Shown: positions 22 through 61,687 of the stretch, piece after piece
Numbering within the stretch: the stretch's first letter is position 1
Layout of the letters: each line of letters starts with the position of its first letter
Assembly: GCA_034620365.1 (NCBI GenBank)
Contig: JAQGEQ010000201.1
Span: 496,001-560,000 of the forward strand
Reading direction: 5' to 3'
Origin: Pegea sp. RAD2-039
Lineage: Eukaryota; Chordata; Thaliacea; Salpida; Salpidae
DNA length: 64,000 nt
The notes under the pieces: generated by a model
The model's input: only the letters and a program-made list of their open reading frames with translations
Database searches by the model: none
What the model was told of the DNA's origin: nothing
Position numbers and translations under genes: made by a program

Positions 22-3000
22 CTTTGCCCGCCGACAAAGGAGGTTTTCCCTCGACACGTGATCGATCAGGAGTCGCCATGATGATAGATGAGGAGTTGTT
101 GACGTTTGTATTCCCGCGAAATATCGGGTTTCGGAACTTAAGAGGCGCCCCCTGGTGATCGTTGGTCATCTGCAGTGACAGCAGTGGTTGCAAAAGACGA
201 TAATGACATCACAAACAAACCGCGAGGGACACGTGACTTCCATGAAGCGATCCTCCTCTTTGATCTCCATTTGTGAGATCTCGAAGATCCATTAGGGATG
301 AATGAACTCCCGCTTGTGGTTGTGACGTCATCACACGCGAGGATGGAGGTAATAGGATCTCTTCTCGCGCACTGCAACAATTGACCTCATCAGCGGTGAC
401 GTCATCAGTAGTGACGTCATCAAACCTTGAAAGAGGAGCATCTTCTAAGATCGAATTGAGATTAGAAGAGGGCTGATCTTCAGATGTTGGATCTTCTTCC
501 CGGATAGGAGGAATCAGGAGAACTGGTGGATGATCTTGCGGAGAGTCAAGAAGATCTGAGATGTTGGAAAGGATCTCAGGAAGCGGATGAAGAGCTGAAA
601 ATGTTGCCTAGAAGACACAAGATCAACATCCACATGTAAAAGATCAATAAAAATCTCACTGCATTCAGAGCTGGCATCAAATCACAGAAGAAGGAGTGAA
701 GACGCGCGAATTCTCGCCCTAAATCGATGTAACCTTCAAAGCCCATTTGTGCTGATGACGTCAGATCGCGATTTGACAAGTTGTCGACGAATGACGTCAT
801 ATCGTCCCATCGTTCGCGTACAAACTGGTCCATGAACTGCATGTACTCTTCTTTGCTTCCAAACCTGCAAGTGACGTCATCAGTAAAAACAAATTAAAGA
901 GTGATGACGTCATCAGCACCTGGAGCGGTTGGCGAGGTTCTGAACGACTTTAGCAACGAGTGTGAGAGATCGCGCGGTTTTGGGGTCCGGGATCTGATTG
1001 GCTAATCCAAAAAGGATTGGGTTTAGAATAGCAGGACACAAGAGGCGAAGAAAAAGGGACGCGGTGATCAATCGAAACGCGATTCGCGGGCGACCCGCTT
1101 CTACAACTTTTCGATGCCAAGTCGAAAAGACTTCTCGAAGCTCCATCGGGAAGTATCTGCGGAAGATGACGTCATCAGTGATGACATCAGCCATGTGTAT
1201 ATGACGTCACTTACTCGACTGATTTGCAAACACGTTCGACAGCTGAGTCACAACATAAACGTAAGTTGTCTTGATTGATAGAAAGAACGGCGTGCGCTGG
1301 AAGACGACTTCCATCGACTTCGTAGTCTGTTGTGGATGAAAAGATGTTTGAGATAAAGTCTCCTGTGAAAGATGCAGGGATTAGATGAAGATACCGGGAT
1401 TGGATGAAGATTACTAACCAAATACTCGATGCAGATACTTCATCCCAACTAATCGAAGAAATGCTTCGACTGATTTTGTGCCAACTGTGTTTTCACGAAA
1501 GATCAAACTCTCTTCTTCAACCTGTTCCACTTCGTCCATCACCAAATTGGTCATATAGTCCTAGGACAACATCTATCAGGTACTGGCCACCATATTTAAT
1601 GAGCAACTAACTTTTATTGAACCTGTAGCATACATGATCTTCACTAATATTTTAGCAACCTCATCTTTTTGTTGAGCAGTTAGAGATGGTCCAAGCGTCC
1701 TACACAAGTTCAAGTAGTTGTTGGACAAGTACTCAGCGAATGACTTGTACTGTTCGGTGGGCAGTACACGCGTGGAAAGAAATCGGGCCTTAAGTCTAAT
1801 AGCCATGGCTTCACCGGCTTTGTTCTTGTTATTACCGCTTGGTGTAAACAAATTGTACCTGCCACAAAATACTCATTTTAACTGGTCCACATCTTACTTG
1901 TCACTGACCATTTCTCAACAAAGTTGTGGTTAAGTAGAGTATTGACCGGCAGGTTGACTAGACCAATGTAGTCCTTGTCTTTCTTCTTCTTTTTATCTGT
2001 GTCCTTATACAAATGGACAGTGATGTCCTGACTAATGGGCAGACATGTAAACTCAAATCCCTCACCCCATAAAATACTACTGCTTATAAAAATCACATTA
2101 AAACTATCTGACCACTGACCCGCGGTCCACTTACCTGTCCTGTTTCCACTTTGAAGATGTCCTCGCACATAATCTTCCATCTAAACAAATTTCACAAAAA
2201 TATTTCTTCTTTGAAGGCAAGCCCTTTGCTTCTTGAACATACAACGATAAGTGGTCCTCAACTCGCAGGCTGTTGTCCTATAAGACACGTGGTTATCAAG
2301 ATGATGACGTCATATGTGAGAAGGTTATACCAAGTTGGGATTAATCGCGCGTTTAATCTTTTCAATCCAAGCTTCGCGCTCTCCGTTTGATGAACACCCA
2401 AAACATCGAGCCACACCTGGTGTGTTCCCCTTAGTGTGGGTCAGCACCTGTTGATGACCTCATAAGTCATGTGAGCAGTCACTACTGACCACTGACCTCG
2501 AAACAGTAGTCCTTTCCCAAAATACTGTGATGTAAAGGTCGTACTTTGGCTGAGGACAGGTCAAGACTAGGCGAGGACAAGTCCAACTGGTCCGGACTTT
2601 CAATAGACGGCATAAAGTATGGTAGTTCCGGCTCTGAGGCATTTCTTGAGTGATTGCCCTGGTTAAAAAATGACCTGTGGACCAGATTTCAGGTTAGGGA
2701 CAGTTGAGGTGGTCGGTGGTGATTGACGGGGTAAATGACGTCATCACTACGTCACTAACCCAGTCGCGCGCTCATTACTCGATTTAAAACAGCCCATGAC
2801 ACAGGAGAGAAAGTTGAAAGGTAAATTCATCCACAAAATTAAAAATTGAAGAATTTACAAAAATCTCTGTCAAAAGTGGCTGAAATTAAATCTGCGCGAA
2901 AACCTATCACTGACTGCAAAAAAAGACATTTCGGTTCGATTCAACTCACTTAAACCAAAGAGGGTGGCAAGTAGCAGGTGGTGACTGGCCCAGCTGGGCC

Positions 3001-58964: not shown

Positions 58965-61687
58965 ATGGCAAAAGCTCCCGCAGTTGGTATTGATTTAGGA
59001 ACAACTTATTCCTGTGTTGGAGTCTTCCAACATGGAAAGGTTAGTTTATCATTTGCTGACAAAATACAATTTTAACTTTCAATAAGATTAAAGGCATTCA
59101 TATATGAAATCAAGTTTTAATTTTAAATATTTTTTTCTGATAAACTTGATTTGATTTTTTTTTCTGATAAACTTGATTTGTTTTTTTTTTCTGATAAACT
59201 TGATATGTTTTTTTATTTTGATAAACTTGATATGTTTTTTCTGATAAGTTTGAAATATATTTTTTTCCATTTTGTAAAGTTTAAAACTTGTTTAACAATT
59301 TTAAGAACTTTCAAGGGATTTTGCTGTTAAAAAATTTCTAGAAGTTTCTAAATTTTTTTCTCGAATTTTCTTTTTAATGACGTCATTTTATCGCGTCATT
59401 TCAACTTCTCAAATTTTGAATTTAAACTTTCAGGTTGAAATTATCGCTAATGACCAAGGTAACAGGACCACACCCTCATATGTGGGTTTCACTGACACTG
59501 AACGTCTCATTGGTGATGCTGCCAAGAACCAGGTCGCCATGAACCCAGTCAACACCGTTTTCGGTTAGTTGCCTCGTTAGGAGTGATGACGTCATCACTT
59601 AACCATTTGTTACAGATGCAAAACGGTTGATTGGTCGAAAGTTTGGGGACACTGCTGTCCAAACAGACATGAAGCAGTGGCCCTTCACTGTCATCAACGA
59701 TTCGACTAAACCTAAGGTGCAAGTGGAGTACAAGGGCGAGACCAAAACTTTTTTCCCTGAAGAAATTAGTTCCATGGTGCTCTTGAAGATGAAAGAAACA
59801 GCTGAAGCTTATCTGGGCAAAACTGTCACTGATGCAGTGGTCACTGTCCCAGCCTACTTCAACGACTCTCAGCGACAAGCTACTAAAGATGCCGGAACAA
59901 TCTCAGGATTAAATGTTCTTCGTATCATCAATGAACCAACCGCTGCTGCTATTGCATACGGATTGGATAAAAAAGTGAGTTAATAAAGATAATTAAAGAT
60001 CATGATGTCAATGATTGGATGTTGTAGGTTGGTGATGAAAAGAATGTCCTCATCTTTGATTTGGGAGGCGGTACCTTTGATGTTAGTATTCTTACTATCG
60101 AAGATGGTATTTTTGAAGTAAAATCTACAGCTGGTGATACTCATTTAGGAGGTAAGATATAAGACATCAATATTGCAACATCAACTAATCCCATGATTAA
60201 CAGGTGAAGATTTTGACAACCGACTCGTTGACCACTTTATTAAGGAATTCAAACGAAAGCACAAGAAGGATATTACATCAAACAAGCGAGCTCTTCGAAG
60301 ATTGAGAACAGCATGTGAACGTGCCAAGAGAACTATCTCTTCATCAGCACAAGCTAGCATCGAGATTGATTCGCTCTTTGAGGGAGTCGACTTCTATACT
60401 AGCATCACTCGCGCTCGATTCGAAGAGTTATGTGGGGATTTGTTCCGAGCAACTCTTGAACCAGTCGAAACTGCTCTCAAGGGAGCTAAGATGGGAAAAG
60501 ATAAAGTGAGTTGATCTCTCTTATATCATCTCTTCTCTCATCTCCAACCTTCAGATTCATGATGTTGTTCTTGTCGGAGGTTCAACTCGAATCCCAAAGA
60601 TTCAGAAGTTGTTGAGAGACTTTTTCAACGACAAAGAGCTCAACAAATCCATCAACCCTGATGAGGCTGTTGCTTATGGTGCTGCTGTCCAAGCAGCTAT
60701 CTTGAGTGGTGACAAATCTGAAGAAGTTCAAGATTTGTTGCTTCTCGATGTTGCTCCATTGTCATTGGGAATCGAAACCGCTGGTGGCGTGATGACTGCC
60801 TTGATTGAACGTAACACAACCGTTCCAACCAAGCAATCGCGTGTCTTCACCACTTACTCTGACAACCAACCCGGAGTTCTCATCCAGGTACTTATTCTCG
60901 TTCTTCAGATTATGACGTCACTAACGCGCGCTTTGTTCAGGTGTTCGAGGGTGAGCGCGCTATGACCAAAGATAACAACTTGTTGGGTAAATTTGAATTG
61001 AGTGGAATCCCCCCAGCACCTCGAGGTGTGCCTCAAATCGAAGTCACTTTCGATATTGATGCTAACGCCATCTTGAACGTCACTGCTTGTGATAAGAGCA
61101 CTGGAAAAGAAAACAAGATCACCATTACCAACGATAAAGGTGACGTCATCGACGCGACTTGTACTGGTTGTGACGTCATTGATCTACAGGTCGTCTGTCT
61201 AAAGAAGAAATAGACAGAATGGTGAATGACGCAGAAAAGTACAAAGCAGAAGACGAGAAGCAGCGAGAACGAATCTCATCCAAGAATGCTCTTGAATCGT
61301 ACGCCTTCAACGTCAAGCAGACTGTTGAAGATGATAAGTTGAAGGATAAGATCTCCGAGGAAGATAAGTCCGCTGTCATCACAAAAGCCAAGGAAGTTCT
61401 GGATTGGTTGGATAACAACCAACAAGCTGAAAAAGATGAATATGAAGATAAACAGAAGGATTTGGAGAAAGTTGCCATGCCTATCATGACTAAACTTTAT
61501 CAAGCTGGTGGTGCTCCTGGTGGTATGCCAGGTAAGACACTATTAATCTCTAGAAGAAGAGGATATTGACAGATTTTTTGTAGGTGGTATGCCTGGTGGT
61601 ATGCCAGCTGGATTCCCTGGTGCTGGTGGAGCTGCCCCTACCGCTGGTGGTGATAGCAGTGGGCCAACAATTGAAGAAGTCGACTAA
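58965..61687 (+). CDS. HSPA8-like: Cytosolic heat shock protein 70 (Hsp70/Hsc70)
   Basis: ATP-driven chaperone of the cytosol and nucleus. Nine exons: 58965-59039, 59434-59563, 59616-59974, 60028-60151, 60204-60505, 60555-60887, 60941-61139, 61190-61531, 61584-61687, phases consistent, 655 residues. Nucleotide-binding domain signatures: [20 protein letters not shown] at the N-terminus, [14 protein letters not shown], and [17 protein letters not shown]. Substrate-binding domain follows ([37 protein letters not shown]), then the helical lid, a GGMP-type repeat tail, and the terminal EEVD that docks TPR co-chaperones, marking it as cytosolic rather than ER or mitochondrial. Upstream are heat-shock elements and a TATA box, yet the coding region has eight introns, more like a constitutive Hsc70. 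The 50-bp intron 61140-61189 contains two TGACGTCA sites. It converges on the thioredoxin-fold gene. Confidence 0.98.
59130..59255. repeat. Tandem repeat of about 26 bp in Hsp70 intron 1
   Basis: Five imperfect copies of TTTTTTTCTGATAAACTTGA plus TATG or TTTG, with unit starts near 59137, 59164, 59191, 59217 and 59241. Confidence 0.8.

What the first reader, a model, noticed from the sequence alone, without database searches (positions are those of the whole stretch)
320..61180. Massive, block-wise enrichment of the CRE/ATF palindrome TGACGTCA
By hand tally about 70 exact TGACGTCA sites occur in 64 kb. With roughly 32% GC, base composition alone predicts about 0.6, so enrichment exceeds 100-fold. 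Many extend to TGATGACGTCATCA. They fall in blocks (0.3-7.1, 15.4-15.9, 27.8-38.1, 40.3-46.2, 59.4-61.2 kb, plus one at 24.4 kb), with none in 7.2-15.4, 16-24.4 or 46.2-59.3 kb. They are not part of a longer repeat unit: flanks beyond about 6 bp differ. This could be a genome-wide bZIP site expansion, a DNA-level signal (nucleosome, replication or chromatin boundary), or a mutational/gene-conversion product.
Basis: partly seen in the sequence, partly recalled or inferred. Interest (0 to 1): 0.88.

Follow-up and report, generated by a model that had tools for sequence, protein, structure and literature searches.

The report
Genome-wide flood of CRE palindromes
One eight-letter DNA word, the classic docking site of the CREB/ATF family of gene switches, is dozens of times too common in this small animal genome and is packed into islands that partly lie inside genes, which points to an unusually heavy use of one switch site.

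Summary
TGACGTCA occurs 76 times in the window; dinucleotide shuffles give 0.59. Genome-wide there are 27,792 copies in 105.7 Mb, against 694 for AGTCGACT, a CpG palindrome of the same letters. Window flanks share no long homology, so it is not a transposon there. Sites cluster: 108 of 120 lie in 31.9 of 244 kb, where CRE-masked CpG o/e is 1.00, against 0.68 outside. 71 of 76 window sites read RTGACGTCAY, the AP-1 site is not enriched, and pairs prefer 19-21 bp. Sites lie in introns of an HSC70 gene and in a RasGAP coding exon; the 12.8 kb upstream of HSC70 have none. Best reading: a genome-wide expansion of sites for a CRE-specific CREB/ATF-type bZIP dimer, in CpG-rich islands. Binding, methylation and chromatin could not be tested. 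In one duplicated stretch retention of sites is no clear sign of constraint. The organism is a metazoan that I could not name; my paper searches found no description of this.

The parts
323..7142 (.). CRE island 1: 27 TGACGTCA sites over part of a RasGAP (SynGAP-type) gene read on the - strand
   Evidence: RasGAP by matches to SynGAP 3bxj
756..799 (-). two CREs (756 and 792) inside a coding exon of the RasGAP gene; the codons of the site at 792 (D-M-T-S) align without a gap to SynGAP, those of 756 lie near a one-residue gap
15415..15921 (.). three CREs, two of them 11 bp apart
24443..24450 (.). single isolated CRE
27765..38139 (.). CRE block 2: 31 sites, CpG o/e 1.13
40291..46175 (.). CRE block 3: 9 sites around a LIM-domain gene that looks like Prickle (name by eye; LIM match at 43307-43543)
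58965..61687 (+). HSC70 gene: ATG at 58965, exon 1 to 59039, a 394-nt first intron, then eight exons separated by seven introns of 49-53 nt
   Evidence: one exon matched to HSC70 structures
59378..61178 (.). CRE block 4: five sites, all in HSC70 introns (59378 in intron 1; 59587, 60913, 61141 and 61171 in three of the short introns)
7200..15414 (.). CRE-free AT-rich stretch (GC 0.247, CpG o/e 0.66)
46176..59377 (.). CRE-free stretch with an ATG101 match, a weak MFS match and a tRNA-Lys (GC 0.271, CpG o/e 0.63)

Best explanation
The sites are binding sites of a CRE-specific bZIP dimer (CREB/ATF type). They have spread through the genome in CpG-rich islands of roughly 0.7 to 8 kb. Where genes could be read here, most of the sites lie in introns, some in coding sequence, and none just upstream. 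SHOWN: genome-wide excess of the exact 8-mer, RTGACGTCAY flank rule, no AP-1 excess, preferred pair spacing at 19-21 bp, clustered distribution with higher CpG, no shared repeat flanks in the window. INFERRED: that a bZIP protein occupies the sites in vivo; that the islands are open, unmethylated regulatory chromatin; and that selection on binding, with turnover of single sites, keeps the excess. The most likely binder is the CREB-like gene (L025, named by eye) or another CRE-preferring ATF-type member.
For: 27,792 genome copies against 694 (AGTCGACT), 969 (ACTGCAGT) and 2,917 (TCAGCTGA), all of the same letters. 71 of 76 window sites are RTGACGTCAY; over window plus sample, T precedes the site in 2% (both orientations pooled). 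Sharp peak: 76 exact against 36 copies of all single-base neighbours in the window, both orientations. In islands TGACTCA is 5 against 6.0 expected, TGACGTAA 8 against 0.9, TGATGTCA 20 against 1.9. Pairs 19-21 bp apart: 22 of 73, binomial p 9e-7, bin chosen after seeing the data; genome-wide 1,248 against 682 at 24-26 bp. Island CpG o/e 1.00 against 0.68, CREs masked. A CREB-like bZIP is encoded. Other promoter-type words also rise in islands: CACGTG 23 against 3.7, CCGGAAG 9 against 1.2, though both rise outside too (28 against 7.5; 11 against 2.0).
Against: No binding, expression, accessibility or methylation data. No promoter bias in the one gene with a clear start: 0 sites in the 12.8 kb upstream of HSC70. 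Sites also occur in a coding exon. In duplicated copies in L023 site retention is near the neutral expectation: A and B share 1 of 5, and 4 of 18 over the pairs of five short copies, where (identity)^8 gives 0.08-0.37 for the pairs that hold sites (the pairs are not independent). TpG/CpA is not higher where CpG is lower (1.13 in CRE-free bins, 1.15-1.18 in bins with CREs), so methylation-driven CpG loss is not shown. Islands were defined by their own CREs. bZIP genes are not obviously expanded. A general 10-bp period is not significant.
Confidence: 0.55

Rival explanations
1. A DNA-level chromatin signal: dense CREs serve an architectural or licensing role (loop anchors, insulation, open-chromatin or germline marking) rather than regulating each host gene one by one.
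For: Sites in introns and in a coding exon; islands and CRE-free stretches alternate over kilobases; none upstream of HSC70. Precedent: a CpG-containing, methylation-sensitive motif at ctenophore loop anchors (PMC12221973, passages).
Against: No 3D or chromatin data; nothing here separates this from ordinary regulatory use.
Confidence: 0.22
2. A mutational or gene-conversion process creates, or repairs towards, the palindrome without functional selection.
For: Sites occur in coding, intron and other DNA; in duplicated L023 copies sites are gained or lost at near-neutral rates; TGATGTCA forms are 4-fold in excess genome-wide (11,070 against 2,673).
Against: I know of no process that writes a 10-bp word with an R..Y flank rule and a preferred 20-bp pair spacing; the single-mutant neighbourhood is poor.
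Confidence: 0.12
3. Meiotic recombination sites of the M26/CRE kind bound by an Atf1-Pcr1-like dimer, islands being hotspots.
For: The fission yeast hotspot motif is ATGACGTCAT and needs Atf1-Pcr1; it also works in budding yeast (PMC3534124, passages).
Against: Hotspot motifs are expected to be lost by conversion (recalled); no recombination map.
Confidence: 0.05
4. A mobile element or satellite carries the word.
For: Some tandem arrays contain it (24-bp units at G000:C3:391171-391682); L023 is duplicated DNA; over window plus sample 17 pairs of CRE flanks matched at E 1e-3 against 6 pairs of shifted controls, the ten rows printed all within L023.
Against: No long shared flanks among the 76 window sites; the RasGAP-exon and HSC70-intron sites lie in otherwise normal gene sequence.
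Confidence: 0.03

Closest known systems
Vertebrate cAMP response element (CRE) bound by CREB/ATF bZIP dimers
   Same: Exact TGACGTCA core and RTGACGTCAY flanks (flank preference recalled); found with ETS words, as in human promoters (PMC3464117, passages), and with E-boxes (comparison recalled).
   Different: 27,792 copies in 105.7 Mb; PMC3464117 Table 2 gives 10,355 in the whole unmasked human genome (passage). Mammalian CREs favour the 150 bp upstream of the TSS; here the DNA upstream of HSC70 has none. Smith 2007 found no positional bias in sea squirt, fly or worm (PMC1796609, abstract and section 6).
Ctenophore loop-anchor GC motif (CTEP1/CTEP2)
   Same: An abundant CpG-containing motif in a metazoan genome, with binding sensitive to methylation in that system (PMC12221973, passages).
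   Different: Different motif and DNA-binding family; no loop data here.
M26/CRE meiotic hotspot of fission yeast
   Same: Same 10-bp word ATGACGTCAT (PMC3534124, passages).
   Different: Nothing here shows recombination.
Intronic PATC repeats of C. elegans germline genes (recalled)
   Same: Dense DNA-level signal inside introns of a gene subset.
   Different: PATCs are 10-bp-periodic A/T runs; this is a bZIP palindrome.

Membership tests
CRE (CREB/ATF bZIP site) | Exact TGACGTCA core in excess | tested here: met
   76 against 0.59 in the window; 27,792 genome-wide
CRE (CREB/ATF bZIP site) | R before and Y after the core | tested here: met
   71 of 76
CRE (CREB/ATF bZIP site) | 8-bp CRE preferred over 7-bp AP-1 | tested here: met
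   TGACTCA 0.84x in islands, 0.91x outside
CRE (CREB/ATF bZIP site) | Cognate bZIP encoded in the genome | tested here: met
   CREB-like L025 and JUN-like L024 among 12 bZIP_1 matches; subfamily names by eye
CRE (CREB/ATF bZIP site) | Occupied by a bZIP in vivo | not testable with these tools
   needs ChIP-seq, CUT&RUN or DAP-seq
Vertebrate-type promoter CRE | Clustering just upstream of the TSS | tested here: not met
   one gene only: 0 sites in 46176-58964 upstream of the HSC70 ATG, 5 inside the gene
CpG island | High G+C and CpG o/e relative to the genome | tested here: met
   GC 0.367 and CpG 1.00 against 0.275 and 0.68, CRE masked; islands were defined by their CREs
CpG island | Unmethylated in a methylated genome | not testable with these tools
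   DNA methylase matches present; TpG/CpA gives no support
Transposon or satellite family | Long shared flanks among copies | tested here: not met
   window flanks; L023 and some arrays elsewhere are exceptions
Loop-anchor motif | Sites at contact anchors | not testable with these tools
   needs Micro-C
M26-type meiotic hotspot | Raised recombination at the motif | not testable with these tools
   needs a DSB or crossover map

The most novel reading that the evidence does not exclude
In this animal lineage a CREB/ATF-type bZIP site has become a genome-wide chromatin code: CREs, often paired about two helical turns apart, written through introns and even exons of a subset of genes, mark islands that stay open and CpG-rich, doing a job that other lineages give to CTCF-like, GAGA-like or PATC signals.
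Probability: 0.2. Interest if true: 0.85.

Novelty: new variant of a known kind. Interest (0 to 1): 0.62.

Why it matters
A single transcription-factor word at about 40 times the level of a CpG palindrome of the same letters, laid in islands, is an extreme case of binding-site expansion. It makes testable how such an expansion arises and persists, and whether an ordinary bZIP can take over genome-wide chromatin organisation. It also gives a natural high-copy system for CRE spacing rules.

Tried and rejected
Transposon or satellite origin: rejected for the window. AP-1 sites: not enriched. ATF6-type TGACGTGG: 0 in islands, 1 outside. NRF1-type GCGCATGCGC: 0 in the window, 1 in the sample; TCTCGCGAGA: 0 in both. 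A link to mini-introns of 46-56 nt in general: 7 of 120 CREs inside candidate intervals against 4.7 +/- 2.2 in shifted controls, so none shown. General 10-bp periodicity: Rayleigh p 0.09-0.2 at periods 9-12, not significant. Identity of the species: Xenoturbella bocki excluded by 43% GC (PMC11521371, passages); a glass sponge like Oopsacas minuta unlikely, because it lacks Wnt (PMC10280926, passages) while here the Wnt family has 27 exon matches on 8 contigs; Aphrocallistes vastus was compared by passages and section 5 of PMC10282587 without a decision; COX1 not found; searches by assembly size found nothing. Literature searches for the phenomenon: 4 of 4 papers listed; 5 of 5; 5 of 2,021; 40 of 47; 2 of 2; none. 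Judged by titles and starts of abstracts, none describes it.
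Full report
Observation. TGACGTCA occurs 76 times in the 64-kb window; 100 dinucleotide-preserving shuffles give a mean of 0.59 and a maximum of 4. The independent-base expectation is 0.51 and the first-order Markov expectation 0.62. The stated blocks and deserts are right. The 14-mer TGATGACGTCATCA is present 6 times, so 'many' is too strong; 36 of 76 sites carry the TGA/TCA extension on at least one side.

Genome-wide. The window is G000:C76:496001-560000 of a 105.7-Mb, 387-contig assembly. 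TGACGTCA occurs 27,792 times. Palindromes of the same letters occur 969 (ACTGCAGT), 694 (AGTCGACT, with central CpG) and 2,917 (TCAGCTGA) times. The excess is thus about 40-fold against the CpG palindrome, 29-fold against the reversed word and 10-fold against TCAGCTGA; only these three control words were counted genome-wide for this core. The window, at 1.19 per kb, is about 4.5 times denser than the genome mean of 0.26 per kb. TGATGACGTCATCA occurs 1,972 times, its reverse 0. A second palindrome, TCACGTGA, occurs 4,614 times against 237 for its reverse. TGATGTCA/TGACATCA, the CpG-to-TpG forms, number 11,070 against 2,673. For comparison, PMC3464117 gives 10,355 TGACGTCA in the unmasked human genome (Table 2, seen as a passage).

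Islands. In 18 stretches of 10 kb, all at 200001-210000 of different contigs (20 were asked for; two contigs were too short), the counts are 0 in 11, 1 in two, 2 in one, and 7, 10, 11 and 12 in four. On C1 the first 100 sites give a mean of 0.32 and a variance of 0.98 per 5 kb, with one bin of 12. Clusters of three or more sites (gaps up to 1.5 kb, 300-bp margins) number 13, are 0.7-7.8 kb long, cover 31.9 of 244 kb (window plus sample) and hold 108 of 120 sites. With the CREs masked they have GC 0.367 and CpG o/e 1.00, against 0.275 and 0.68 elsewhere. These clusters are defined by the CREs themselves. In 1-kb bins of GC 0.35-0.5, CpG o/e (CREs masked) is 0.96 with CREs (24 bins) and 0.74 without (18 bins). 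TpG/CpA o/e is 1.13 in CRE-free bins and 1.15-1.18 in bins with CREs, so methylation-driven CpG loss is not shown, although DNA methylase matches exist (11).

Signature of a protein site. 71 of 76 window sites read RTGACGTCAY. In window plus sample the base before the site, both orientations pooled, is A 65%, G 29%, C 5%, T 2%, and information is low beyond three flanking bases. All single-base neighbours together number 36 in the window against 76 exact sites; the commonest are TGATGTCA (12, expected 3.2) and TTACGTCA (7, expected 1.8). In islands TGACTCA (AP-1) is 5 against 6.0 expected, TGACGTAA 8 against 0.9, TGATGTCA 20 against 1.9, CACGTG 23 against 3.7 and CCGGAAG 9 against 1.2; the last two are also raised outside islands (28 against 7.5, 11 against 2.0). 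Pairs of sites prefer 19-21 bp: 22 of 73 pairs up to 38 bp apart (56 from the listing, 17 from window and sample; p 9e-7, with the bin chosen after seeing the data). Genome-wide there are 1,248 pairs at 19-21 bp against 682 at 24-26 bp, out of 5,280 at 8-38 bp. Tandem arrays add to both classes (for example C3:391171-391682 with 24-bp units; C1:3616342-3616409 with 20-bp units). A general 10-bp period was not significant.

Where the sites lie. An HSC70 gene (one exon matched to HSC70 structures) starts at 58965. Its first intron and three of its seven 49-53-nt introns hold all five sites of that block: 4 sites in 361 nt of short intron, plus one TGATGTCA, and none in the 1,893 nt of coding sequence of exons 2-9. 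The 12.8 kb upstream of its ATG have none. The RasGAP gene at the left matches SynGAP. One of its exons carries two CREs. The codons of the one at 792 (D-M-T-S) fall in an ungapped stretch of the SynGAP alignment, so that site fits substitution rather than insertion; the one at 756 lies near a one-residue gap. Mini-introns are not shown to be a general home of CREs. The other window sites were not assigned to exon or intron. CRE-poor stretches also contain genes: an ATG101 match and a weak MFS match in the window; of 10 long frames from CRE-poor sampled stretches (8 with no site, L021 with 2), matches over the curated cut-off included OATP, sugar transporter, RRM, ZNF598 RING, chondroitin transferase and a reverse transcriptase. 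Of 10 frames from the four CRE-rich stretches, matches over the cut-off included C2H2 zinc fingers, PHD, CBF/Mak21, a lysine methyltransferase family and an ABC transporter at its cut-off; three had none. CRE density therefore does not simply follow gene presence.

Result that gives no support for strong constraint. L023 contains diverged duplicate copies. Of five positions with a site in copy A or B, one is intact in both; the other four lie in the first 310 columns, 79% identical, where identity to the eighth power is 0.15, and the shared one where it is 0.49. Over all pairs of five short copies, 4 of 18 positions are intact in both (A-D 2 of 3, A-C 1 of 2, B-D 1 of 3, the rest 0), where the same estimate gives 0.08-0.37 (the pairs are not independent). 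Broken forms include TGATGTCA and TTACGTCA. At this one locus sites turn over about as neutral DNA would, within small numbers. The genome-wide excess would then be kept up by selection on the number or spacing of sites, or by continual creation.

The factor. The bZIP_1 search gave 12 matches, a lower bound. By eye (names recalled) they include JUN-like (L024), CREB-like (L025), FOS/ATF3-like (L027), C/EBP-like (L029), XBP1-like (L033) and CNC-like (L032) genes, two with identical ATF6-like translations (L034, L035), and others. No expansion is evident. The most economical binder is CREB-like or another CRE-preferring dimer; which one is not known.

Organism. Wnt matches on eight contigs, JUN-like and CREB-like genes and an intron-rich HSC70 point to a metazoan. 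Xenoturbella bocki is excluded by GC (43%), and a glass sponge like Oopsacas minuta is unlikely because it lacks Wnt. I could not name the species, so whether others have described this is untested beyond the paper searches listed.

Verdict. A real, extreme, genome-wide and clustered excess of one bZIP site. The bZIP-binding reading has moderate support; a broader chromatin role is open; chance is excluded, and so is a transposon for the window.

Noticed in passing
L036-L039 and G000:C57, C249, C32, C52: Seven long DNA (cytosine-5) methylase open frames (832-873 aa) in multiple copies, one pair inverted about 4 kb apart on C57; they could be mobile-element or recently duplicated genes.
   Followed up: no
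G000:C3:391171-391682 and 813967-814166: Tandem arrays with a 24-bp unit carrying a CRE in the listed units.
   Followed up: no
window 5561-5802: 22-bp minisatellite, about 11 copies, without a CRE.
   Followed up: no
window 59564-61583: Seven HSC70 introns of nearly constant length (49-53 nt).
   Followed up: partly
genome-wide; window 4099, 5159, 7207 and nine more: A second CpG palindrome, TCACGTGA, is also in excess (4,614 against 237 for the reversed word); by eye it is less clumped in the C1 listing.
   Followed up: partly
L034 and L035: Identical ATF6-like bZIP translations on contigs C21 and C37: recent duplicate or haplotype copy in the assembly.
   Followed up: no
window 59130-59240: 27-bp tandem repeat inside HSC70 intron 1.
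   Followed up: no
L023:2209-3656 and 8552-10000: Direct duplication of 1.45 kb, 91% identical, with diverged shorter copies between.
   Followed up: partly
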